From: Bacteroidaceae bacterium
GTDB lineage: Bacteria > Bacteroidota > Bacteroidia > Bacteroidales > Bacteroidaceae
DNA: 39,962 bases
NCBI GenBank assembly: GCA_017483665.1
Contig: JAFUVM010000052.1
Coordinates: forward strand, 1-39,962
Direction: 5' to 3'
Program-made: the position numbers and the translations under genes
Shown here: positions 12,178 through 39,277 of the stretch, piece by piece
How positions within the stretch are numbered: position 1 is the stretch's first letter
Layout: each line of letters opens with the position of its first letter
Notes under the pieces: model-generated
What the model saw: only the letters and a program-made list of their open reading frames with translations
Told to the model about the DNA's origin: nothing
Database searches by the model: none

Positions 12178-12917
12178 TAGAACTGATTCCTGCAATAGAC
12201 ATCATCGAAGGCAAGTGCGTGCGTCTGACGAAAGGCGACTACGACACGAAGAAAGTCTACGGCGACCCGCTGCGGATGGCACAGGAGTTCGAGGACCTGG
12301 GCATGCGCCGGCTGCATGTGGTCGACCTGGACGGAGCCAAGAGCAAGCATGTGGTCAACATCGACGCCCTGCGTGCCATCACCTCGCACACCAGTCTCAT
12401 TGTCGACTTCGGCGGAGGCGTGAAGACCGACGAAGACCTGGAGAAGGCCTATGATGCAGGCGCAACGATGGTCACGGCAGGAAGCATCGCCATCACCGAC
12501 CCGGAGCGCTATCTCGGTTGGCTCGCAAAGTACGGCGCCGACCGCCTCATCCTGGGTGCAGACGTCAGGGAAGGCCGCGTCTCCATCAACGGTTGGAAGG
12601 AAGATTCCGACGTGCGGCTGGAGGACTTCCTGCTGCGCTACATGCAGGCCGGCACGAAGAACGTCCTCTGCACCGAAATCAGTCGCGACGGCACACTCGC
12701 CGGACCGGCCATCGACCTCTACCGCAGCATCATGAGCCGCTACCCCGAGTGTCACCTCATAGCCAGCGGCGGCGTAGGCAGCATGGAGGACATCCTTGCC
12801 CTCGACGCAGCAGGCATCCCGGCAGTCGTCTTCGGCAAAGCATACTACGAGGGACGAATTGACATAAAGAAATTAAAAATTAAGAGTGAAGAATTAAGAA
12901 TTAAGAGTGAAGAGTGA
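12174..12917 (+). CDS. hisA: ProFAR isomerase HisA
   Basis: TIM-barrel isomerase of histidine synthesis converting ProFAR to PRFAR. The two catalytic aspartates are D9 (IPAIDI) and D130 (ILGADV); the phosphate loops are FGGGV and ASGGVGS. It overlaps hisH by four bases, indicating translational coupling. The core ends near residue 230 (GKAYYEG); the final ~16 residues (KKLKIKSEELRIKSEE) are encoded by the beginning of the GAAGAATTAAGA filler that continues after the stop, so this charged tail is repeat-derived. Confidence 0.95.
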   Translation: MIELIPAIDIIEGKCVRLTKGDYDTKKVYGDPLRMAQEFEDLGMRRLHVVDLDGAKSKHVVNIDALRAITSHTSLIVDFGGGVKTDEDLEKAYDAGATMVTAGSIAITDPERYLGWLAKYGADRLILGADVREGRVSINGWKEDSDVRLEDFLLRYMQAGTKNVLCTEISRDGTLAGPAIDLYRSIMSRYPECHLIASGGVGSMEDILALDAAGIPAVVFGKAYYEGRIDIKKLKIKSEELRIKSEE

Positions 12918-12993
12918 AGAATTAAGGATGAAGAGTGAAGAATGAATAATGAAGAATTGAAAGTCTCCCCTCGGGGAGATTTAGAGGGGGTCA
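12870..12993. repeat. Filler repeats and palindrome between hisA and hisF
   Basis: AT-rich units of agagtgaagaattaag type from about 12870 to 12960, overlapping the end of hisA, then a small CTCCCCTCGGGGAG palindrome (12966-12979) and AGAGGGGGT just before the hisF start. Confidence 0.7.
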
Positions 12994-12994
12994 T

Positions 12995-13798
12995 ATGTTA
13001 GCAAAGAGAATCATCCCCTGCCTGGACGTCAAGGACGGGCAGACCGTGAAAGGAACCAACGTCCTGCAGCTCCGGCAGGCAGGCGACCCGGTGGAGCTTG
13101 GCAAGCTCTACAGCCGTCAGGGAGCCGACGAGCTGGTCTTCCTCGACATCACCGCCAGTCACGAGGGGCGCAAGACCTTCACAAATATGGTGCAGAAGGT
13201 GGCAGCCGAGATAGACATACCCTTCACCGTAGGCGGCGGCATCAGCGAGCTGGCCGACGTGGACCGCATGCTCTCCGCCGGAGCCGACAAGATAAGCATC
13301 AACAGCGCCGCCCTGCGCCGCCCGCAGCTCATCGACGAGATTGTCAGTCACTTCGGCAGCCAGGTCTGCGTCGTTGCCATCGATGCAAAAATGGATAGCG
13401 ACACAGGAATAGGGAATAGTGACACCGGAATAGGGAATAGCGGCGAGGAAGCGTGGACCTGTTACCTCAACGGCGGGCGCATCCCGACGGAGCGCAACCT
13501 CTTCGACTGGGCTCGCGAAGTGAACGACCGCGGTGCTGGCGAGATACTCTTCACCAGCATGAACCACGACGGCGTGAAGCAAGGCTTTGCCTGCAACGCC
13601 CTCAGCCGCCTTGCATCTCTGCTGACGATACCCGTCATAGCCAGCGGCGGCGCAGGCTGCATGGAAGACTTCCGCGATGTCTTCGCCCTGGGACACGCCG
13701 ACGCCGCACTCGCCGCCAGCGTCTTCCACTTCGGGCAGATCGGCATACCCGAGCTCAAGGAATACCTGAGAAAGGAAAACATTAACGTCAGGCGGTGA
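12995..13798 (+). CDS. hisF: Imidazole glycerol phosphate synthase cyclase HisF, with in-frame tandem insertion
   Basis: TIM-barrel cyclase partner of HisH, producing imidazole glycerol phosphate and AICAR. Catalytic aspartates are D11 (PCLDV) and D130 (VVAIDAK); the phosphate sites are VGGGIS and ASGGAG. Immediately after the D130 strand about 18 extra residues ([17 protein letters not shown]) occur, encoded by two copies of a 21 bp unit (13397-13417, 13418-13438). They fall in the loop before the Bacteroidetes-type LNGGRIPTE segment, so the barrel can remain intact. Together with HisH, both halves of the same enzyme carry repeat-derived loops. Confidence 0.94.
13397..13438. repeat. 21 bp tandem duplication inside hisF
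   Basis: Two adjacent 21 bp units differing at two positions, each containing GGAATAGGGAAT. The sequence type matches the GGGATTAGGGATTAGG spacer after hisF rather than hisF itself. Confidence 0.85.
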
Positions 13799-13867
13799 GA
13801 GATTAGGGTTTAGGGAGTAGGGATTAGGGATTAGGGTTTAGAGATTAGAGATTAGAGTTTAGTGATT
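13799..13867. repeat. TTAGGG-like simple repeat spacer
   Basis: Runs of GATTAGGG/TTTAGGG/GATTAGAG variants of 7-8 bases between hisF and hisIE. Telomere-like by composition only; this is the local intergenic filler. Confidence 0.8.
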
Positions 13868-14494
13868 ATGAATAGTGAATTAAACATCGACTTCAATAAG
13901 TGTGGCGGCCTGGTGCCTGCCATCATTCAGGATGCAAAGACTAAGACCGTGCTCATGCTCGGCTATATGAACCAGGAAGCGCTCCGGAAGACACAGGAGA
14001 CGGGGCTCGTCACCTTCTTCAGCCGTTCGCGCCAGTGCCTCTGGACAAAGGGCGAAACGAGCGGCAACTACCTGCATCTGGTCGACATCAAGAGCGACTG
14101 CGACAACGATACGCTCCTCGTACAGGCAATTCCCGATGGTCCTACCTGCCACACCGGCACCGACACCTGCTGGGGCGAAGAGAACCGTCCCAATCCGCTG
14201 CTCTTCCTCTCCGAGCTCAGCGACTTCATCGAACAGCGTCACCGCGAGATGCCCGAAGGCAGCTACACCACATCCCTCTTCCGCGACGGGCTGAACCGCA
14301 TGGCGCAGAAGGTGGGCGAGGAAGCGCTGGAACTGGTCATCGAAGCCACCAACGGCACCAACGACCGCCTCATCTACGAAGGTTCCGACATGCTCTACCA
14401 CCTCATCGTGCTCCTCACCAGCAAAGGCCTCCGCATCGAGGACATGGCAGCCGAGCTGATGGAGCGTCACAATCCAGGTTGGAAGAAACACTGA
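13868..14494 (+). CDS. hisIE: Bifunctional phosphoribosyl-AMP cyclohydrolase / phosphoribosyl-ATP pyrophosphatase
   Basis: 208 residues catalysing the second and third steps of histidine synthesis. The N-terminal HisI part (to about residue 115) has GYMNQEAL, SRSRQCLWTKGE, SDCDNDTLL and GPTCHTGTDTCW, the metal-binding residues of the cyclohydrolase. The C-terminal HisE part has the MazG-like KVGEEALELVIEA helix. The ATG at 13868 is preferred over a GTG two codons earlier. It is the last his gene of the run. Confidence 0.95.
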   Translation: MNSELNIDFNKCGGLVPAIIQDAKTKTVLMLGYMNQEALRKTQETGLVTFFSRSRQCLWTKGETSGNYLHLVDIKSDCDNDTLLVQAIPDGPTCHTGTDTCWGEENRPNPLLFLSELSDFIEQRHREMPEGSYTTSLFRDGLNRMAQKVGEEALELVIEATNGTNDRLIYEGSDMLYHLIVLLTSKGLRIEDMAAELMERHNPGWKKH

Positions 14495-14593
14495 CAATTG
14501 ACAATTGATAATTAAGAATTAAGAATTAAGAATTAAAAATGATGGATGAAGAATGAAGATTCTTAACTCTTAATTCTAATTAAAAGAAAGACA
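14495..14593. repeat. AT-rich filler between hisIE and ftsE
   Basis: GACAATTGACAATTGATAATT followed by repeated aattaagaattaag, then a self-complementary part (GAAGATTCTTAACTCTTAAT). No promoter box is evident, so ftsE may depend on read-through from the his genes. Confidence 0.65.
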
Positions 14594-20365: not shown

Positions 20366-20459
20366 GACATCAGCTACCTCTCTTTCCGACACAGCGTGCG
20401 CTTATTTCTGAAATTCCTTCTCCCGAAAAGAAGAATCTGCTCGGAAAAACTCAAATATA

Positions 20460-21977: not shown

Positions 21978-23016
21978 GCTTTCGCAGAAGCTCTTTGTTG
22001 ATGATGCTGATGCGACGCTGCCGCTCCAGGAAGTCAGCACGTATGTCAGCCCCGATGTTTGAGATTTCTTCGTTCACGCCGTGATAGAGGTCGGTGAAGG
22101 TGCGGAGTAGGGGAGGAACGTACAGCTGTTCGCGAGTGTTGACGACCATGCGGATTCCTTTGGGCACAAGCTGGACGTCAAGCTCTTCGCCTGCCTCCTT
22201 CGGGTCGCCGTCGAAGTGTATCACGCCGGGTGCACTTCGTTTGATATGCAAATGTCGGCAACGGAATGTGCGGATGCGGCTGTTGTTCGCGATGGTCTTG
22301 TTGAAGAGCTGGATAGCAATCTGCGGAGCCTCGAGCACGGTGAAGGGTTCCATCAACGTCACGTCCATCAGTCCGTCGCTCATGCTGGCATGCGGGGCGA
22401 TGTACACGTTGTTGCCGTACTGGCTGGCGTTGGCGCAGGCGATGAGAAACGCCTTGTAGACCTGTCGCTCGCCGTCGATGGTTATCTCGTAAGTGTCGGG
22501 TTTGTACTTCAGGCCTTCCTTGAGCGTATTCTCGATGTATGTGAGCAGTCCGCGACGCCCGGCCTTCGAGAAACGGTCGCTAATGAAGGCATCGAAGCCT
22601 ACGCCGCATGTGCAGAAGAACGGCACTTCGTCGATGACGCCGTAGTCAAGCTGTTCTATCTGACAGGCAGAGAGAACCTGCAGGGCGCCGTCGGCATTCA
22701 TCGGGATATAGAGGTGTCTAGCCAGCCCGTTGCCGCTGCCGCAGGGAATGATGCCGAGGGCAGTGTTCGTATGAATCAAGCTTCGTGCCACCTCGTTGAC
22801 CGTGCCGTCGCCGCCTACGGCCACTACGACATCCATCCCGTTCCTTACGGCTTCGTTTGTCAGTTCGGCAGCATGTCCGCGATGGTCGGTGCGACTTATC
22901 GTCCACTCAAAGCGGTTTGCATCGAGATACTCAGGGATGAGGTCGATGATGTGCTGCTTGTCCGATGTGCCCGAAATAGGGTTGACAATGAAGAGTATTT
23001 TTGTTCTTGTCTCCAT
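21964..23016 (-). CDS. Diacylglycerol/sphingoid lipid kinase family protein
   Basis: 350 residues of the DAGK catalytic family (YegS/DgkB type). ILFIVNPISGT at the start, nucleotide motif VVVAVGGDGTVNE, GIIPCGSGNGLARHL, and the C-terminal VIHFDGDPKEAG segment. It phosphorylates a lipid hydroxyl with ATP; the substrate could be diacylglycerol or a sphingoid base. The divergent neighbour is serine palmitoyltransferase, which makes a sphingolipid substrate plausible but unproven. The ATG at 23016 is chosen because the -7 box (23036-23029) is just upstream. Confidence 0.85.
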   Translation of the reverse strand: METRTKILFIVNPISGTSDKQHIIDLIPEYLDANRFEWTISRTDHRGHAAELTNEAVRNGMDVVVAVGGDGTVNEVARSLIHTNTALGIIPCGSGNGLARHLYIPMNADGALQVLSACQIEQLDYGVIDEVPFFCTCGVGFDAFISDRFSKAGRRGLLTYIENTLKEGLKYKPDTYEITIDGERQVYKAFLIACANASQYGNNVYIAPHASMSDGLMDVTLMEPFTVLEAPQIAIQLFNKTIANNSRIRTFRCRHLHIKRSAPGVIHFDGDPKEAGEELDVQLVPKGIRMVVNTREQLYVPPLLRTFTDLYHGVNEEISNIGADIRADFLERQRRISIINKELLRKLRKK

Positions 23017-23028
23017 ACATTTCCGTTG

Positions 23029-23036
23029 CAAAGGTA
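23029..23036 (-). promoter_or_regulatory. -7 box for the lipid kinase gene
   Basis: TACCTTTG on the minus strand; the ATG is 12 bases downstream of its last base, so the mRNA would be near leaderless. Confidence 0.6.
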
Positions 23037-23130
23037 ACAAAAAAACTTCATTCTGCGCATACTAATTATATAAATAGTCACGCTATGCATTTTTTTTCGG
23101 CAAGTACAACGCTATTTCAAGAAAAAGAAG

Positions 23131-23138
23131 TACCTTTG
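23131..23138 (+). promoter_or_regulatory. -7 box for serine palmitoyltransferase
   Basis: TACCTTTG, 43 bases before the ATG. Upstream at 23055-23076 lies an AT-rich GCGCATACTAATTATATAAA motif similar to ones before the beta-helix gene and fabD. Confidence 0.6.
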
Positions 23139-23181
23139 CACAAAAATTTTGCCCAAGCAGGGGCAACTGACTTAAAACGAT

Positions 23182-24366
23182 ATGGGATTATTACAAGAGA
23201 AATGCGCCCGCTACACACTCCCGCAGGAGTTTATGGCGCAGGGTATTTACCCTTACTTCCGTGAGATTGAGGGAAAGCAAGGTACCGAGGTCATCATGGA
23301 GGGACGACGCGTACTGATGTTTGGTTCGAATGCATATACTGGCCTGACAGGCGACCAGCGCGTCATCGATGCAGGCTGTGCGGCCATGCAGAAGTACGGC
23401 AGCGGTTGTGCAGGAAGCCGTTTCCTGAACGGCACCCTCGACATACATGTACAGCTCGAGAAGGAGCTTGCCGAGTTTGTGGGCAAGGACGAAGCACTCT
23501 GCTTTGCAACAGGTTTCACCGTAAACAGCGGCGTCATCAGTCAGATCGTCGACCGTAACGACTACGTTATCTGCGACGACCGCGACCACGCGAGCATCGT
23601 CGACGGACGCCGGCTCAGCTTTGCTACGCAGCTCAAGTACAAGCACAATGACATGGAAGACCTGGAGAAGCAGCTTCAGAAGTGTGAGCCTGACCTCATC
23701 AAGCTCATCGTCGTGGACGGTGTCTTCAGCATGGAGGGCGACCTTTGCAAGCTTCCGGAGATTATCGAGCTGAAGAAGAAATACAATGCCACCGTGATGG
23801 TCGACGAGGCTCACGGCATCGGTGTCTTCGGCAGACAGGGCCGCGGCGTGTGCGACCACTTTCATCTGACCGAGGATGTCGACCTCATCATGGGCACTTT
23901 CTCCAAGAGCTTGGCTTCCATCGGCGGTTTCATCGCAGCCGACAGCAGCGTCATCAACTGGCTCCGCCACACCGTCCGCACCTACATCTTCAGCGCAAGT
24001 TGTACGCCGGCGGCTACGGCTGCAGCCCGCGAGGCACTTCACATCATCCAGAAGGAGCCGGAACGTCTGGAGGCACTCTGGAGCGTGACGAACTACGCCC
24101 TGAAGCGTTTCCGCGAGGAAGGTTTTGAGATAGGCGACACCGAAAGCCCCATCATTCCGCTCTATGTGCGCGACACGGACAAGACCTTCATGGCCGTTGC
24201 CAAGGCTTTCAACGAAGGAGTCTTCATCAACCCCGTCATTCCGCCCGCATGTGCCCCGCAGGACACGCTGGTTCGCTACGCGTTGATGGCAACCCACACC
24301 CGCGCTCAGGTGGACGAATCCGTAGAAAAACTCAAGAAAGTCTTCAAGGAACTGGGGATTCTCTAA
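23182..24366 (+). CDS. spt: Serine palmitoyltransferase (alpha-oxoamine synthase)
   Basis: 394-residue PLP enzyme joining serine and palmitoyl-CoA to 3-ketosphinganine, the first step of sphingolipid synthesis in Bacteroidetes. FGSNAYTGLTGD, GSGCAGSRFLNGT, the substrate His in DDRDHASIVDG, VDEAHGIGVFG, and PLP lysine K242 (GTFSKSLASIGGF). The sequence is very close to what I recall for the Bacteroides thetaiotaomicron enzyme, which separates it from the related glycine C-acetyltransferase and BioF. No other sphingolipid genes are next to it except the divergent lipid kinase. Confidence 0.88.
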   Translation: MGLLQEKCARYTLPQEFMAQGIYPYFREIEGKQGTEVIMEGRRVLMFGSNAYTGLTGDQRVIDAGCAAMQKYGSGCAGSRFLNGTLDIHVQLEKELAEFVGKDEALCFATGFTVNSGVISQIVDRNDYVICDDRDHASIVDGRRLSFATQLKYKHNDMEDLEKQLQKCEPDLIKLIVVDGVFSMEGDLCKLPEIIELKKKYNATVMVDEAHGIGVFGRQGRGVCDHFHLTEDVDLIMGTFSKSLASIGGFIAADSSVINWLRHTVRTYIFSASCTPAATAAAREALHIIQKEPERLEALWSVTNYALKRFREEGFEIGDTESPIIPLYVRDTDKTFMAVAKAFNEGVFINPVIPPACAPQDTLVRYALMATHTRAQVDESVEKLKKVFKELGIL

Positions 24367-24410
24367 GCCGACAAACATCGAACCTCAAAGGGACGTTTTA
24401 TAATTAACAC

Positions 24411-24492
24411 AACGGATTAAACAGATTGCACGGATTTAAGCAACGCTGATAACCAGCATGCTTGATAATCTGTGCAATCTGTTTAATCCGTT
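24411..24492. terminator. Long inverted repeat of CGGATT units (terminator-like)
   Basis: Arms 24411-24436 and 24467-24492 are complementary over 26 bases with one mismatch; loop 30 bases. Each arm is built of CGGATT or CAGATT words spaced by 9 bases, and ATTTTGTTAAATT follows. The same design is at 33738-33802. It can terminate spt transcription. Confidence 0.75.
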
Positions 24493-24540
24493 ATTTTGTT
24501 AAATTGTTGTATTCGTCACACATTATCTTATCTGTATAAG

Positions 24541-24640
24541 CACGCGTCGCCAGCGAACTAACCACGCGTTGTTGGCGAACTAACCACGTGTCGCCAGCGA
24601 ACTAAGCACGTGTTGTTGGCAAACTAACCACGTGTCGTTT
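24541..24640. repeat. 22 bp tandem array upstream of the beta-helix gene
   Basis: Four full 22 bp units (24541, 24563, 24585, 24607) and a partial fifth, each with GAACTAA followed by CACG. Units 1 and 3 share TCGCCAGC and units 2 and 4 share TTGTTGGC, so there is a 44 bp higher-order unit. Confidence 0.92.
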
Positions 24641-24684
24641 CCGACCTTCGCGTACATTATTATATAAATTTGGCGCGGTTTGTC

Positions 24685-24715
24685 TTGCCCATAACAGCTT
24701 TTTTGCTTATCTTTG
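24685..24715 (+). promoter_or_regulatory. Promoter of the beta-helix gene
   Basis: TTG (24685-24687), 20 bases, TATCTTTG (24708-24715); ATG at 24751. A CGCGTACATTATTATATAAA motif lies upstream at 24650-24669. Confidence 0.65.
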
Positions 24716-24750
24716 CGGAAGAAATGTTTGATTTTAACCAAAGATAAGAT

Positions 24751-26547
24751 ATGAAACTCCGCACAGTCCTCCTCTTCTTCATCTCCGTTTTTGCCTCTTT
24801 CCCAAAAGCGTATGCCGACTTCACCGACCCGCTTTTCGGCCCGAATGTACACGTCTACAAGCCAACCGACAACATGGACAGCATACATGCTGACGTTGAG
24901 CGTATTCACGAACGGCTCTTCAAGCAGGACTTCAGCCGCGAGCGTTATGCCCTGCTCTTCATGCCGGGCGACTATCGTGAAGCCGGTTTGTTGAAAATAC
25001 CTTTCTATGTTCATGCAGCAGGACTCGGCAGAACGCCACTTGAGGTGCAGGTGAGCAATATCCACACGCCGCCACATCTGCCCGACGGTAACTGCACCTG
25101 CACCTTCTGGCGAAGCGTGGAGAACCTGTCCGTCATCGGTAAAGCGACCTACGACGAAGAGGAGACCTTCAAGTGGAGCGTCTCGCAGGCAGCACCCATC
25201 CGCCGTGTCTACAGCGAACGCACCGTCCGGCACCAGTGGCTGAAGGGGTGGGTGAGCGGCGGCTTCACGGCCGATTGCTGGTTTGTGGCACCGGCTGGCA
25301 GCGACCACCAGCAGCAATGGTATACGCGCAACACACGTCTGGAACAGGGACGCGGCGAGTTCAAGGAAATGAAGTACAACTATGTGTTCCAGGGTGTAGA
25401 GTTGGGCGACGACGTGGACCGCAGCACGTATACCGACAACTGGGACAAGGGAGGCAACGTCACCTTCCTGCCGCAAACGCCTGTCATCCGCGAGAAACCG
25501 TTCCTGTTTGTTGGCGATGACGGCCGGTACAAAGTGTTCCGTCCGGCCCTTCGGCGCGATGCGGTCGGTCTGTCGTGGAGCAAGGATAGGATAGGGGACG
25601 GCGATGTAATCGATTTGCAGGAAGCCTTCTTCCTTGTCAAGCCCGGAACTTCCGCTTCAGACATCAATTGTCAACTGTCGGAAGGCAAGCATCTTATGTT
25701 CATGCCCGGCATCTTCATCCTCGATGAACCCCTGCGGATAAGCCGTCCGGGCACTATCGTGATGGGACTTGGCTGGAGCACCGTTGTGCCGGGCGAAACG
25801 AACCCCGAGGCGGCAATCATCGTAGAGGACGTAGACGGCGTGAGCGTCTGCTCGTTGCTCTTCGATGCACATTTCTCGTCGCGTGCTTTACTTTCTGTCC
25901 GGGGCGGCAAGCGTCATTACAACAACCCGACGTTGCTTGCCGACCTGTTCTTCCGTGTCGGAGGTTTCCGCTCGTCGCCCGTCCATGTGGATTGCGCGCT
26001 GGAGATCGGACAGTCGGACGTCATCGGCGACCATTTCTGGATTTGGAGAGCCGACCACGGCGTGCGTGGCAGCGTGGGATGGAACGTCAACACGGCTCCC
26101 GTGGGACTTCACGTCACCGGCGACTATGTGACAATCTACGGACTTTTCAACGAGCATTTCCAAGAGTATCAAGCCCTTTGGGAAGGCGAATACGGGCGTA
26201 CTTTCTTCTATCAGTGCGAGACGCCCTACGATGCTCCGAGTCAGGACGCATATATGAGCCACGGCGGAACGGTGCAAGGCTTTGCCGCCTATAAGGTTGG
26301 CGACAAGGTCCGTCATCACGAAGCAACGGGTTTTGGCATCTACGACGTGCTGTTCAACTCGAAGATTCGCATTGAAAGTTCTGTTGAAGTGCCCGAGCGT
26401 AAAGGCATCAAACTGCGTCACATCTGCAACAACTCGCTTTCCAATCCCGGTCCGCGCGGCTTTGGCTATGTCGTCAACAAGCACACGCCGAGCACATACA
26501 ACACGTTCCGCGACAATCGCACGTACATCGACCGAATCGATTTCTAA
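24751..26547 (+). CDS. Secreted right-handed beta-helix protein (coagulation factor 5/8-annotated family)
   Basis: 598 residues with a signal peptide (LRTVLLFFISVFASFPKAYA). RYALLFMPGDY, HAAGLGRTPLEV, NFWRS-like TFWRSVENL, VSQAAPIRRV, SREKPFLF-like IREKPFLFVGDD, IVMGLGWSTVVP, RVGGFRSSPVHV, WIWRADHG and NEHFQEYQALWEGEYGRTFF match a family of secreted proteins abundant in actinomycetes and fungi-like gene sets, often labelled coagulation factor 5/8 type or adenylyl cyclase, with a beta-helix fold like GH55 glucanases. Glycan hydrolysis is likely but the substrate is unknown. It stands alone between two 22 bp arrays, and its isolated position suggests transfer. Confidence 0.65.
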   Translation: MKLRTVLLFFISVFASFPKAYADFTDPLFGPNVHVYKPTDNMDSIHADVERIHERLFKQDFSRERYALLFMPGDYREAGLLKIPFYVHAAGLGRTPLEVQVSNIHTPPHLPDGNCTCTFWRSVENLSVIGKATYDEEETFKWSVSQAAPIRRVYSERTVRHQWLKGWVSGGFTADCWFVAPAGSDHQQQWYTRNTRLEQGRGEFKEMKYNYVFQGVELGDDVDRSTYTDNWDKGGNVTFLPQTPVIREKPFLFVGDDGRYKVFRPALRRDAVGLSWSKDRIGDGDVIDLQEAFFLVKPGTSASDINCQLSEGKHLMFMPGIFILDEPLRISRPGTIVMGLGWSTVVPGETNPEAAIIVEDVDGVSVCSLLFDAHFSSRALLSVRGGKRHYNNPTLLADLFFRVGGFRSSPVHVDCALEIGQSDVIGDHFWIWRADHGVRGSVGWNVNTAPVGLHVTGDYVTIYGLFNEHFQEYQALWEGEYGRTFFYQCETPYDAPSQDAYMSHGGTVQGFAAYKVGDKVRHHEATGFGIYDVLFNSKIRIESSVEVPERKGIKLRHICNNSLSNPGPRGFGYVVNKHTPSTYNTFRDNRTYIDRIDF

Positions 26548-26558
26548 TGCGCCTCGAC

Positions 26559-26690
26559 AATAAGCGCCTTGCTCTTCAAAAATAAGCACGAGGCGCTTCC
26601 GAAATAAGCACGAGGCGCATCCAAAATAAGCACGAGGCTCTTCGGAAATAAGAGCGTGGCTCTTCCGAGATAAGCGCGTGCCGCGTCCCG
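26559..26690. repeat. 22 bp tandem array, six units, right after the beta-helix gene
   Basis: Unit starts at 26559, 26581, 26603, 26625, 26647 and 26669, each beginning AATAAG or GATAAG followed by CACGAGG, AGCGTGG or similar. The spacing is exactly 22 bases throughout. The units fit the same degenerate consensus as the array at 24541. Confidence 0.95.
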
Positions 26691-26914
26691 TTCTGGCGGA
26701 TTTGAAATCCGCCAGCATGGAATATCAGCATTTGTAATGCGACATAAAAAATCCGCCAGCATGGAATATCAGCATTTGTAATGCGACATAAAATTTGTTT
26801 CGGGATTGCAAATCCCTATAATCTATATGGCCGGATTGCAAATCCGTCCAAACGCGTTGAGACATGGATTATGGCCGGATTGCAAATCCGTCCAAACGCG
26901 GTGAGACATAGATT
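26691..26914. repeat. Palindromes and two 44 bp direct repeats
   Basis: GGCGGATTTGAAATCCGCC is a perfect palindrome (26696-26714). A 43-base sequence beginning AATCCGCCAGCATGGAATAT recurs at 26706 and 26750 (period 44). A second, beginning ATGGCCGGATTGCAAATCCG, recurs at 26827 and 26871 (period 44). GGGATTGCAAATCCC lies between them. The rest, to the next gene at 27083, holds only a promoter. Confidence 0.9.
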
Positions 26915-27005
26915 TTACTAAACATAACGTCGATTAGAACCTAACAAGCTGATTCTCTGTGCCACGTCCTGGAAACAGCTCCATCTGTTATTTGTTGGTC
27001 ATTTA

Positions 27006-27037
27006 TTTTGTTGTTTTGAAATAATTCCTTAACTTTG
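27006..27037 (+). promoter_or_regulatory. Promoter of the oxidoreductase gene
   Basis: TTTTG (27006-27010), 19 bases, TAACTTTG (27030-27037); ATG at 27083. Confidence 0.75.
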
Positions 27038-27082
27038 CATTGGAGCATGCATGGTTTGCTCTGTTATTAATCCACAGAAACG

Positions 27083-28066
27083 ATGAAAATTTCGATAGCA
27101 GGAACAGGAAAAATCGCCGAGGAGGTCTTGAAGCTTCTCCACAAAGACTTTCAGGGAAAGATTGAGGTGACCGGCATCTATGCACGCGAGAAAAGCGTGG
27201 AACACGCCATCGACCTCTGCATGGCCTACGCGCCAACAGGCTTCGTCTACACAGACTACGGACGGATGCTCCAGGAGGCCGAGGCCGACTTCGTGTATAT
27301 CGCTAATGCCAACCACGTGCACCACGAATACGCCATGCAGGCGATGATGGCCGGAAAGAGCGTCATCGTGGAGAAACCCATTGCTGTAGATCGCGTTCAG
27401 ACAGAAGAGCTTATCGACACAGCCATACAGCGTTGCGTCTACTGTCTGCCGGCATTCTCGTTGCTCTACATGCCGCTTTTCCGTCAGCTGCAGGAGGTCT
27501 TGCCCCTGATCGGCAAGGTCCGGATGGTACATTGCAACTATGCCCAGCGCAGCAGCCGCTACGACCGCTATCTCCGCGGCGAGCTGACTCCCGTCTTCGA
27601 CCCCGCGATGGCCGGCGGCACTCTGGCCGACCTGAACATCTACAACCTCTGCTTCACCATCGGACTGTTCGGGCCTCCGCGTACCATTCGCTACGACTGC
27701 AACCGCGGGTACAACGGCGTTGACATCAGTGGTACCCTGCTCTGCCACTACCCGACAGCCTTGGCAGTGCTCAGCGCATCGAAGGATTCCGACGGACTCT
27801 CCTACGGCTGCATCCAGGGAGAGGACGGCTACATCGAGGTGCACGGTTCGGTGAGCATCCTCGAATCCTTCACGCTTCACCAGCGGGGCAAAGAGCCTGT
27901 CACCTACAAGAGTGAAACGGGCCGCCATCGTCTCAGCTATGAGTTCAGCGAATTTCTGGCCCTCGTCGAGAACAAGCAAGAGTGCCACATCGTCATTCCC
28001 TACGTGACACGCATCATGCAAGAGATAGCCATCGCGCAAGAGCGCATGGTGCAGTTCTCCAAATAA
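27083..28066 (+). CDS. Gfo/Idh/MocA family oxidoreductase
   Basis: 327 residues, cytoplasmic. N-terminal Rossmann fold (SIAGTGKIAEEV) and the family EKP motif (E97-K98-P99 in VIVEKPIAV), then the beta-sheet substrate domain with GGTLADLNIYNLC. Enzymes of this family oxidise or reduce sugars and related polyols with NAD(P). The substrate cannot be inferred from sequence. It is followed by a sulfatase gene 78 bases downstream, which would fit sugar scavenging, but no transporter is adjacent. Confidence 0.85.
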   Translation: MKISIAGTGKIAEEVLKLLHKDFQGKIEVTGIYAREKSVEHAIDLCMAYAPTGFVYTDYGRMLQEAEADFVYIANANHVHHEYAMQAMMAGKSVIVEKPIAVDRVQTEELIDTAIQRCVYCLPAFSLLYMPLFRQLQEVLPLIGKVRMVHCNYAQRSSRYDRYLRGELTPVFDPAMAGGTLADLNIYNLCFTIGLFGPPRTIRYDCNRGYNGVDISGTLLCHYPTALAVLSASKDSDGLSYGCIQGEDGYIEVHGSVSILESFTLHQRGKEPVTYKSETGRHRLSYEFSEFLALVENKQECHIVIPYVTRIMQEIAIAQERMVQFSK

Positions 28067-28143
28067 AGACAATGTAATAATGTCATAACGATATAACGTC
28101 ATAACATCATAACGAAAGAACGCTAATAACGAAATTAATATCC
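28067..28143. repeat. ATAACG/TCATAAC simple-repeat spacer
   Basis: Repeated TCATAAC and ATAACG words between the oxidoreductase and sulfatase genes; no promoter box seen. Confidence 0.6.
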
Positions 28144-29694
28144 ATGAACAAACTCCCGTTTATCCTCCTTGGCAGCTGTGCCGCCAGTGCTGTCCAAGCT
28201 CAGCGCTGGAACATCGTCTACATCATGAGCGACGACCATTCCTACCAGGCAATCAGCGCCTACGGACACCCTTTGGGCCAACTGGCCCCTACCCCCAACA
28301 TCGACCGGCTGGCCCAGCGCGGCATGCTCTTCCGCCGTGCCTATGTCGAAAACTCGCTCAGCACCCCCAGCCGGGCTTGCCTGATGACCGGCATGTACAG
28401 CCACCAGAGCGGCCAACGCACGTTGGACTGCCCCATCGACCCCCAGGCACCCTTCGTCAGCGAATACCTACAACAGGCTGGCTACCAGACGGGAATGATG
28501 GGAAAGTGGCACATGCTGTGCGAACCGAAAGGCTTCGACAGCTACTATGTCCTTCGCGGTCAGGGAGAGTATTACGACCCTGTGTTCCGCTCGAAGGAGA
28601 GCGGTGGGAAGTACGTCGAAGAGAAAGGCTACGCCACGAATCTCATCACCGACCACGCCATTCGCTTTTTGGAGGAACGTGACAAAGACAAGCCCTTTGC
28701 ACTCTTCGTACATCACAAGGCGCCGCACCGCAACTGGATGCCGCCACTCGACATGCTCGACCTCTACGAGGACATCGAGTTTCCCCTGCCCGCAACCTTC
28801 CGCGACGACTACGCCACGCGAGGCCGTGCAGCACACGAGCAGCAGATGAGCATCGCCAAGGACATGGAGATGTGCTACGACCTGAAGGTCACACAGATAA
28901 AGCCCGGCATGGGCTACACCCACGAACGCAACCACAACGGGTTCCGGGGGCAGCTCGCACGCATGACGCCCGAACAGAGGGAAAAGTGGGAGTCCGTCTA
29001 CAATCCGCGCAACGAGGCCATGCTTGCGCAGAACCTCACCGGCGACGACCTGCTCCAGTGGAAGTACCAGCGCTACATACGCGACTATATGCGCGTCATC
29101 CATAGCGTCGACCAACAGGTGGGCCGTCTGCTCGACTACCTGGAAGCCAACGGACTGATGGACAACACACTCGTCGTCTACACCAGCGACCAGGGCTTCT
29201 ACATGGGCGAACACGGATGGTTCGACAAACGCTTCATGTACGAAGAGTCGTTCCGCACGCCCCTGCTCGTCTGTGCCCCTGGCATGAAGGACGGACAGAC
29301 CAGCGACGCCCTGGTGCAGAACATCGACTACGCCCCTACCCTGCTTGATATTGCCGACGCCGAGAAGCCCGGGCAGATGGTGGGCCGTTCGCTCCTGCCC
29401 GTCATGAGCAGCAAGGGAAAAGAGCCCAAGGACTGGCGGCAGTACCTCTATTACCACTACTACGACTGTCCCGCCGAGCACAACGTAAGCCGACACGACG
29501 GCGTGAGCGACGGCAGATACAAGCTCCTGCATTTCTACGGAAAGAAGGGAGCCTACGATGAACTCTACGACATCAAGAAAGATCCCAACGAACTGCATAA
29601 TGTAATAGCTGAAGGAAAGTATGCCAAGCACCTGAAGCGCTTGCAGTTGCAACTCGACAAGTTCCGCAGTGAGCAGCACGTCGACGAATGGTAG
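28144..29694 (+). CDS. Sulfatase, serine-type active site
   Basis: 516 residues; exported (signal peptide ending near AVQA, residues 1-19). Type I sulfatase: metal aspartates D30-D31 (SDDHS), active-site motif S73-T-P-S-R77 (SLSTPSRACLMTG), GKWHM, HHKAPHRNW, and YTSDQGFYMGEHGWFDKR. The catalytic residue is Ser, so it needs an anaerobic sulfatase-maturating radical SAM enzyme to form formylglycine; none is in this window. It removes sulfate esters, probably from host or plant glycans; subfamily and substrate not determinable. Confidence 0.9.
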   Translation: MNKLPFILLGSCAASAVQAQRWNIVYIMSDDHSYQAISAYGHPLGQLAPTPNIDRLAQRGMLFRRAYVENSLSTPSRACLMTGMYSHQSGQRTLDCPIDPQAPFVSEYLQQAGYQTGMMGKWHMLCEPKGFDSYYVLRGQGEYYDPVFRSKESGGKYVEEKGYATNLITDHAIRFLEERDKDKPFALFVHHKAPHRNWMPPLDMLDLYEDIEFPLPATFRDDYATRGRAAHEQQMSIAKDMEMCYDLKVTQIKPGMGYTHERNHNGFRGQLARMTPEQREKWESVYNPRNEAMLAQNLTGDDLLQWKYQRYIRDYMRVIHSVDQQVGRLLDYLEANGLMDNTLVVYTSDQGFYMGEHGWFDKRFMYEESFRTPLLVCAPGMKDGQTSDALVQNIDYAPTLLDIADAEKPGQMVGRSLLPVMSSKGKEPKDWRQYLYYHYYDCPAEHNVSRHDGVSDGRYKLLHFYGKKGAYDELYDIKKDPNELHNVIAEGKYAKHLKRLQLQLDKFRSEQHVDEW

Positions 29695-33737: not shown

Positions 33738-33802
33738 CAACGGATTCAACGGATTGCATTTGCTGATGATTTTACAAATAGAACAATCCGTTGAATCCGT
33801 TG
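33738..33802. repeat. CGGATT inverted repeat, second copy
   Basis: CAACGGATTCAACGGATTG (33738-33756) and its exact reverse complement (33784-33802), loop 27 bases containing GCTGATGA. The loop of the copy at 24411-24492 also has GCTGATAA. Lies between the helicase fragment and the DUF4293 gene and could terminate minus-strand transcription. Confidence 0.85.
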
Positions 33803-39205: not shown

Positions 39206-39277
39206 ATCGTTCCCGCATGTGGGAACGATGGGAACAGCACACGGGAACGATGGGTGCAGCACTTGGGAACACCGCAC
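39206..39277. repeat. 22 bp tandem array with inverted leading unit
   Basis: ATCGTTCCC (39206-39214) and GGGAACGAT (39221-39229) form a hairpin. Units of 22 bp start at 39219 and 39241, with a partial third at 39263; all contain GGGAAC and end in GCAC. Close relative of the array at 9722. Confidence 0.85.

What the first reader, a model, noticed from the sequence alone, without database searches (positions are those of the whole stretch)
24541..26914. Strict 22 bp / 44 bp periodic arrays bracket a lone secreted beta-helix gene
Upstream, four units at exact 22 bp steps alternate in two types, giving a 44 bp higher-order unit. Downstream, six units at exact 22 bp steps (26559 to 26690) are followed by two different direct repeats, each with period 44 (26706/26750 and 26827/26871). 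The upstream and downstream 22-mers fit one degenerate consensus, AAmTAAsCACGmGkyGyT plus a few bases. Unit sequences have diverged but the period has not, which suggests selection or a copying mechanism acting on length (two helical turns), not simple slippage.
Basis: seen in the sequence. Interest (0 to 1): 0.75.

Follow-up and report, generated by a model that had tools for sequence, protein, structure and literature searches.

The report
Genus-wide 22-bp two-turn DNA arrays
Bacteria of one rumen-type Bacteroidales genus carry many short repeat arrays between their genes whose letters differ from place to place and species to species, but whose step is held at 22 base pairs (about two turns of the double helix), which suggests that something in the cell reads or copies DNA by that length.

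Summary
The arrays are real: upstream 24534-24643, downstream 26558-26689, with 44-bp duplications at 26705-26793 and 26826-26914. They do not belong to the gene between them (GH55-like). They are one site of a genus-wide habit: in samples of the own genome and of 23 and 20 relatives (278, 406 and 321 kb after dropping two stretches not picked blindly), periods 22/44 number 21, 22 and 18; other periods of 17-50 bp not multiples of 7, 8 or 9 number 6, 5 and 6. Sixteen outgroup genomes (197 kb) had no period-22 array. 181 arrays fall into 40 sequence clusters. At two sites of a sister species the array has the same period but a unit no more alike than chance. Units differ by 9-16%, yet 397 of 401 spacings are multiples of 22, and phase breaks are several-fold rarer than in 7-, 8- and 9-bp arrays of the same genomes. 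Conservation follows one helical face (11-bp rhythm) in the main family and in 27 others combined, but not significantly in 11 replication arrays. Dyads are enriched. Most likely: phased operator-like sites for a cooperatively binding protein, not yet identified. A length-measuring copying mechanism remains possible. Closest known: P. gingivalis BrickBuilt.

The parts
24534..24643 (+). Upstream 22-bp array, 5 units, two alternating types (CACGYGTCGCCAGCGAACTAAC / CACGYGTTGTTGGCGAACTAAC); ends upstream of a putative TTTG...TAnnTTTG promoter of the next gene (promoter motif recalled, read by eye)
24751..26547 (+). Gene between the arrays: secreted GH55-like protein, 598 aa; not part of the repeat system
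   Evidence: no Pfam, NCBIfam or PHROG match; PDB 4pew/4pex/4tyv/4tz1 E about 1e-102 over residues 29-576; that these are a Streptomyces GH55 beta-1,3-glucanase is recalled, and secretion is judged by eye from the N-terminus
26558..26689 (+). Downstream 22-bp array, 6 units of family A (AAATAAGCRCNNGGCKCTTCCG), starting about 10 bp after the stop codon
26692..26914 (+). Dispersed palindromic module (palindromes GGCGGATTTGAAATCCGCC, GCATTTGTAATGC, GGGATTGCAAATCCC, GGCCGGATTGCAAATCCG), following the array here and at some other loci
26705..26793 (+). Exact 44-bp tandem duplication inside the module, 89 nt = 2 x 44 + 1
26826..26914 (+). Second 44-bp tandem duplication (95%), 89 nt = 2 x 44 + 1, spanning the module's end and flank
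39221..39270 (+). Another 22-bp array in the window, different unit GGGAACGATGGGAACAGCACAC, 2.3 copies
20396..20415 (-). One leftover family-A-like unit (read by eye) where the sister genome has an array of 8 units (G078, L214:430-605)

Best explanation
The arrays are members of a genus-wide class of intergenic minisatellites whose 22-bp unit spans two helical turns and often contains a dyad. Most likely they are phased, operator-like sites for a DNA-binding protein (or several related ones) that binds cooperatively along one face of the helix. Units are gained, lost and homogenised by in-register unequal exchange, so arrays change number in 22-bp steps. Substitutions off the contacted face are tolerated; an indel would rotate all following sites by about 34 degrees per base and is removed. 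Shown: period, phase fidelity, family turnover, presence at the same sites in a sister species (in stretches chosen for holding arrays), the 11-bp conservation rhythm in family A, dyad enrichment. Inferred: the protein, cooperativity, selection as the cause, and any role such as organising DNA between convergent genes.
For: Period 22/44 against other periods of 17-50 bp not multiples of 7, 8 or 9: 26 vs 6, 23 vs 5, 18 vs 6 in three samples; 21 vs 6, 22 vs 5, 18 vs 6 after dropping L049 and L206. A scan that does not assume spacing: 388 of 401 consecutive family-A units at 22, nine at 44/66/88/110, four off. Control in the same genomes with the same scoring: 22-bp arrays 1561 mismatches to 11 breaks (plus 3 breaks in one array set apart because its consensus was not 22 long); 7-mers 403 to 41; 8-mers 223 to 12; 9-mers 185 to 10. 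Ordinary intergenic DNA, own vs sister: 1481 substitutions to 124 indels. Change rate per column is very uneven in family A, with an 11-bp rhythm: p=0.0015 overall, 0.0038 own and 0.0013 sister; in 27 other clusters combined p=0.0045, the other six harmonics tested not significant. Perfect 6-pair dyads: 5 of 34 families (0.83 expected), 8 of 16 in the replication set (0.57 expected); single-copy control 3 of 57 (1.40 expected). No preference for unit orientation among same-strand gene pairs, 20 vs 18, as expected for a DNA site.
Against: No binding protein was identified. One genome holds many different unit families, which a single sequence-specific protein would not explain. The 11-bp rhythm was not significant in 11 replication arrays (p=0.14; there periods 22 and 7.33 gave p=0.016 and 0.036). 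37 of 50 families lack a perfect 6-pair dyad. A weaker gap penalty shrank the indel contrast to 19.7 against 8.8-15.6 mismatches per indel. Sister sites can lose the array: L239:10209 has no array in G078, and window 20396 has one unit against eight, so arrays are not essential at every site. Edge units are degenerate, as in any minisatellite.
Confidence: 0.42

Rival explanations
1. A copying or recombination mechanism that measures DNA in 22-bp steps makes tandem duplications of 22 or n x 22 bp whatever the sequence (for example paired nicks two turns apart, filled in), so period is a mark of origin, not of function.
For: Repeats with a unit of 30 bp or more and no internal short period still often have periods that are multiples of 22: 23 of 41 non-coding rows (22 of 39 after removing two duplicate rows), about 2 expected; coding rows 1 of 9. 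Both 44-bp duplications in the window have only 1 bp of junction homology (89 nt each). 40 sequence clusters share the period.
Against: Many of the 22 rows belong to one AATTCGTG family or to the palindromic module, so independent events are perhaps 8 of 24 (my count by eye). No fresh one-copy-to-two-copy 22-bp birth was caught; intergenic gaps of 10 or more within own/sister alignments are not quantised (10, 10, 11, 11, 12, 12, 14, 15, 15, 16, 17, 20, 27, 41). It does not by itself explain face-specific conservation or the rarity of indels in diverged arrays.
Confidence: 0.22
2. Ordinary neutral minisatellites: hairpin-forming units slip in register, and 22 is a lineage accident inherited from early seed arrays that spread and diverged.
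For: Higher-order 44/66/88 repeats, decay of unit identity with distance (18.5 of 22 adjacent to about 16 at six apart) and degenerate edges are what unequal exchange gives. Palindromic units could promote slippage (recalled). Some clusters may be old relatives: the tRNA-site pair matches at 13 of 22 (p=0.031).
Against: Arrays of other periods in the same genomes carry several-fold more phase breaks per mismatch; columns evolve very unevenly; many clusters share 22.
Confidence: 0.24
3. RNA-level element: a tandem of small hairpins acting as a two-way terminator or 3' stabiliser.
For: Convergent gaps hold 27 of 78 family-A arrays against 56 of 308 baseline gaps (Fisher p=0.003). Counting the array, 32 of 48 convergent 3' ends have a hairpin plus T-run; without it 9 of 48; ends in gaps without arrays 46 of 142.
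Against: No compensatory change in the family-A stem: pair 9-15 is Watson-Crick in 54%, 8-16 in 74%, changes one-sided. No strand preference (20 vs 18). Arrays also lie in divergent gaps (13 of 78). An exact spacing of 22 is not needed for hairpins. None of 6 Rfam hits in 23000-28200 reached its gathering score.
Confidence: 0.09
4. Mobile element of the BrickBuilt type: the array is the internal minisatellite of a MITE and the palindromic module is its tail; spread is by transposition. This is about spread and does not exclude the readings above.
For: Array and module occur together in the same order at several own and sister loci; 13 of 91 family-A arrays have module-type palindromes within 120 nt on the 3' side, 5 on the 5' side; the array family is dispersed to many loci.
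Against: 73 of 91 family-A arrays have no module-type palindrome within 120 nt; the sister genome has the array without the module at the window site. No target-site duplication or clean empty site was shown. It explains spread, not the 22-bp constraint.
Confidence: 0.15

Closest known systems
BrickBuilt minisatellite-MITE of Porphyromonas gingivalis (PMC4596501; abstract, sections 5 and 9 and part 1 of section 7 read)
   Same: Bacteroidales, intergenic, tandem unit of about two helical turns, unit number varies between strains, non-uniform variation inside the unit, sometimes joined to palindromic or inverted-repeat sequence
   Different: Unit 23 nt with 0-6% indels, one sequence family, 19 loci, leader and tail with IS5-like ends; here 22 bp, 40 sequence clusters in the arrays examined, strong phase retention, genus-wide
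MITE464/PgRS of P. gingivalis with 41-nt repeats, and the 22-, 23- and 41-nt direct repeats reported for strain W83 (as told in PMC4596501 section 7)
   Same: Tandem repeats in a Bacteroidales genome, one class at 22 nt
   Different: Not compared by sequence here; no constraint on length is mentioned in the part read
REP/BIME elements of enterobacteria (recalled)
   Same: Palindromic intergenic units, often between convergent genes; the module at 26692-26914 resembles a BIME in anatomy
   Different: REP are single palindromes of about 35 bp with a dedicated RAYT; the 22-bp arrays are direct tandem repeats
Plasmid iterons and other phased operator arrays (recalled)
   Same: Direct repeats spaced about two helical turns and bound cooperatively
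   Different: Single origin or operator, one sequence; here many intergenic sites and many sequences

Membership tests
BrickBuilt MITE | 23-nt tandem unit | tested here: not met
   22-bp spacing in 388 of 401; one spacing of 23
BrickBuilt MITE | Terminal repeats GAGACCTTTGCA at element ends | tested here: not met
   12 matches with up to 2 mismatches in the window, none between 23750 and 28689; window only
BrickBuilt MITE | Intergenic, copy number varies between relatives | tested here: met
   of 91 family-A arrays 78 are intergenic with two called neighbours, 3 inside a called gene, 10 at contig edges; unit numbers differ between own and sister genome
BrickBuilt MITE | Leader and tail flanking the repeats | tested here: inconclusive
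   a shared module lies near 18 of 91 arrays; no shared leader was looked for systematically
REP/BIME with RAYT | Cognate Y1 (RAYT) transposase in the genome | tested here: inconclusive
   one Y1_Tnp match, E 5.6e-6, positions 31-90 of 121; no link to the repeats shown
CRISPR array | Unique spacers between repeats | tested here: not met
   units abut with no spacers
Tandem minisatellite | Head-to-tail unit, number variable between relatives, in-register higher-order repeats | tested here: met
Structured RNA element | Compensatory changes in the stem | tested here: not met
   (family A only)

The most novel reading that the evidence does not exclude
A genus of Bacteroidales has a DNA-length ruler: either a filament-forming DNA-binding protein or a recombination or copying enzyme that keeps or makes intergenic tandem repeats at 22 bp (or n x 22) largely independent of sequence, so that arrays at the same site are replaced by unrelated sequences of the same period.
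Probability: 0.27. Interest if true: 0.85.

Novelty: new variant of a known kind. Interest (0 to 1): 0.6.

Why it matters
Bacterial minisatellites are usually treated as slippage products with arbitrary unit length (recalled). Here different sequences across a genus share one step of about two helical turns, keep it while bases change, and can be swapped at a conserved site. If that is selection it points to an unknown phased DNA-binding system used at many places per genome (26 arrays in 298 kb of the own genome would scale to some 200 or more); if it is mutation it points to an enzyme that measures 22 bp. Either can be tested directly.

Tried and rejected
Promoter or regulatory role tied to the GH55-like gene: rejected, the arrays are dispersed and the 87%-identical orthologue lacks the upstream one. 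Chance: rejected. RNA hairpin as the conserved thing: not supported by covariation in family A. Coding repeat: the family-A unit holds TAA at a 22-bp step, so it meets all frames, and 78 of 91 arrays are intergenic with two called neighbours. A general 22-bp quantum in all intergenic indels: not seen. A first indel count with a weak gap penalty gave only 19.7 mismatches per indel for 22-bp arrays against 8.8-15.6 for other classes; I judged that it counted compensated gap pairs and consensus strings of wrong length and redid it with a strong gap penalty and at least 2.9 units. The 11-bp rhythm did not reach significance in the replication set. Rfam: 6 hits, none at gathering level, in 23000-28200. 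Literature: searches listed no title or abstract start on 22-bp arrays of this kind; besides BrickBuilt I saw passages of PMC5771137 and PMC10969869, the rest as listings only; the library holds open-licence PMC papers only.

Full report
1. Observation. Upstream, five units at exact 22-bp steps alternate in two types (24534-24643). Downstream, six units run from 26558 to 26689, then a 44-bp repeat at 26705-26793 and another at 26826-26914. The best 66-nt self-match at lag 22 is 56 of 66; 200 single-base shuffles of the region reached at most 33.

2. The gene between them. It has no Pfam, NCBIfam or PHROG match, but matches PDB chains 4pew/4pex/4tyv/4tz1 at E about 1e-102. I recall these as a Streptomyces GH55 beta-1,3-glucanase, a beta-helix protein. 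A Gfo/Idh/MocA-like gene and a sulfatase gene follow it. The arrays are not specific to it: a query of 24500-27000 has 68 matches in the own genome, its own place included. The orthologue in L050 (87% identity) has no upstream array and a different, palindromic 22-bp array downstream; the one in L073 (91%) has both arrays, with more units.

3. Is 22 special? I took 20 own contigs (298,053 b; 19 by every seventh contig number, plus C149, L049, which I knew to hold arrays), 24 stretches from 23 genus relatives (426,274 b; contig 1 or 2 as a rule, but L206 from a contig known to hold matches) and, as a replication, contig 1 of 20 more relatives (321,200 b). TRF arrays (score at least 50) with period 22 or 44: 26, 23 and 18; without L049 and L206: 21, 22 and 18. 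Other periods of 17-50 that are not multiples of 7, 8 or 9: 6, 5 and 6 in both counts. Without TRF, lag 22 = 19, 9 and 13 segments (17, 8, 13 without those two); lags 19, 20, 23 = 0, 0, 1; 0, 0, 0; 0, 0, 0. Sixteen genomes of the same order (196,558 b) gave no period-22 array among 15 arrays, and 77 protein-hit loci, mostly named as other genera (640,173 b), gave one lag-22 segment. Short repeats of 7, 8 and 9 bp and their multiples are also common, and a palindromic 21-bp family exists.

4. Many sequences, one period. 181 arrays with lag-22 identity of 0.6 or more (some loci overlap, and many were fetched because they matched the window's arrays) gave 40 single-linkage clusters at 16 of 22: one of 128 (family A, which includes the window's arrays), nine of 2-5, and 30 singletons (300 shuffled pairs reached at most 15). 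Examples are printed. A consensus family-A query matched 3 of 41 genomes (own, G013, G020), so the sequence is species-limited while the period is not.

5. Sister genome. L073 lies in G078, about 80-91% identical in long blocks. Most G078 stretches were chosen because they hold array matches, so sharing of sites is over-represented. By my reading, at 11 of 12 own sites with a 22-type array of more than two copies and aligned flanks, G078 also has one, with different unit numbers and higher-order units of 44, 66 or 88 bp. At two of these the units match no better than shuffles: L254:17433-17491 against L268:3256-3319 (9 of 22, p=0.86) and L261:6929-6993 against L266:6926-7014 (10 of 22, p=0.66). 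At a third, between convergent tRNA-Leu and tRNA-Met genes (L259:962-1063 against L219:4700-4842), the match is 13 of 22 (p=0.031), perhaps old relatives. G078 has a 12-unit array where the own genome, read by eye, has degenerate units still in 22-bp register (L254 near 12045). The other way: L239:10209 has no array in G078; G078 arrays at L225:5574 and L266:12068 have none in the own genome; window 20396 keeps one unit against eight.

6. Phase is held. A weight-matrix scan that does not assume spacing found 401 consecutive unit pairs within 120 bp: 388 at 22, nine at 44/66/88/110, four off (23, 30, 41, 64); the matrix itself came from arrays picked by 22-bp chaining. Adjacent family-A units differ at 3.5 of 22 positions; in 53 non-A arrays 133 spacings were 22, four were 44 or 66, one 20, one 21 and four 10. 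Ordinary intergenic DNA between own and sister shows 12 substitutions per indel. With equal scoring, 22-bp arrays show 142 mismatches per phase break (158 arrays, 11 breaks; one further array with 3 breaks was set apart because its consensus was not 22 long), 7-mers 9.8 (152 arrays), 8-mers 18.6 (42), 9-mers 18.5 (36), non-heptamer 21-bp arrays 81 (22 arrays, 2 breaks). A weaker gap penalty gave smaller contrasts (19.7 against 8.8, 9.0, 15.6 and 10.3).

7. Inside the unit. In family A, columns 1, 2, 9, 11, 12, 21 and 22 change in 19-35% of 248 interior pairs, the other 15 in 0-9%. This has an 11-bp rhythm (p=0.0015; own 0.0038, sister 0.0013). In 27 non-A clusters combined the 11-bp power is 1.53 against 1.05 (p=0.0045); the other six harmonics tested are not significant. 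In 11 replication arrays it is 1.35 (p=0.14), while periods 22 and 7.33 give 0.016 and 0.036, so the rhythm is firm for family A and tentative in general. Perfect 6-pair dyads: 5 of 34 families (family A among them), then 8 of 16 in the replication set, with 0.83 and 0.57 expected; control 3 of 57 with 1.40 expected. Stem positions of family A show no compensatory change.

8. Module and 44-bp repeats. The stretch 26692-26914 is a palindromic module found in the same order after 22-bp arrays at several own and sister loci, though 73 of 91 family-A arrays have no such palindrome within 120 nt. Its palindromes mostly lie 29-31 bp apart (72 of 91 spacings under 250 bp). Both 44-bp duplications are 89 nt, that is, with 1 bp of junction homology. 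Of 41 non-coding repeats with a unit of 30 bp or more and no internal short period, 23 have periods that are multiples of 22 (22 of 39 after removing duplicate loci), about 2 expected; many share a family; coding rows 1 of 9. This favours a length rule in the copying itself, but ordinary intergenic gaps are not quantised.

9. Context. Of 91 family-A arrays, 78 are intergenic with two called neighbours: convergent 27, same-strand 38 (20 and 18 by unit strand), divergent 13. Baseline gaps of 100 bp or more in the same DNA: convergent 56 of 308 (Fisher p=0.003), divergent 66 of 308 (p=0.43). Gene calls come from a simple codon model of my own, and much of this DNA was fetched for its arrays.

10. 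Reading. Phase retention, face-wise conservation and dyads are best explained by phased binding sites plus in-register exchange; the many sequence families and the 22n duplications keep a sequence-independent ruler alive. No binding protein was found, and none of these tests measures function.

11. Known relatives. BrickBuilt of P. gingivalis (PMC4596501) is the nearest in print among my searches, but this fails its unit length and end sequences.

Noticed in passing
window 24407-24496 (related 9-bp pieces at 33738-33802): A large imperfect inverted repeat (AACGGATTAAACAGATTGCACGGATT...AATCTGTGCAATCTGTTTAATCCGTT) next to the upstream array; similar elements match in several genus relatives (G013, G020, G043, G069), often on both strands.
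   Followed up: partly
window 12871-12958, 13798-13868, 14492-14559: Heptamer arrays (AATTAAG, GATTAGG types) around consecutive genes; 7 bp is the commonest or second commonest single period in the samples.
   Followed up: partly
window 13395-13442: A 21-bp tandem repeat lies inside the reading frame 12995-13798 (translation ...[17 protein letters not shown]...), so a repeat of the intergenic heptamer kind seems to have entered a coding sequence in frame.
   Followed up: no
L239:17376-17419 against L225: Two identical 22-mers directly before a start codon; the sister genome has the same length with two units that agree at about 15 of 22 (my count): homogenisation without length change.
   Followed up: partly
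L239:17247-17321, L225:2029-2105, L254:11969-12037: A second palindromic family with period 21 (TATTTCAGTGCCTTGGAAATA); non-heptamer 21-bp arrays are also poor in phase breaks.
   Followed up: partly
L259:820-1213 and L219:4544-4981: Convergent tRNA-Leu and tRNA-Met genes in both species with very different 22-bp arrays between them.
   Followed up: yes
L031:4098-4293, L237:9142-9448, L234:17037-17544, L189:1-1362: A dispersed AATTCGTG family with periods 44, 88 and 220 although its unit is built of 9-mers.
   Followed up: no
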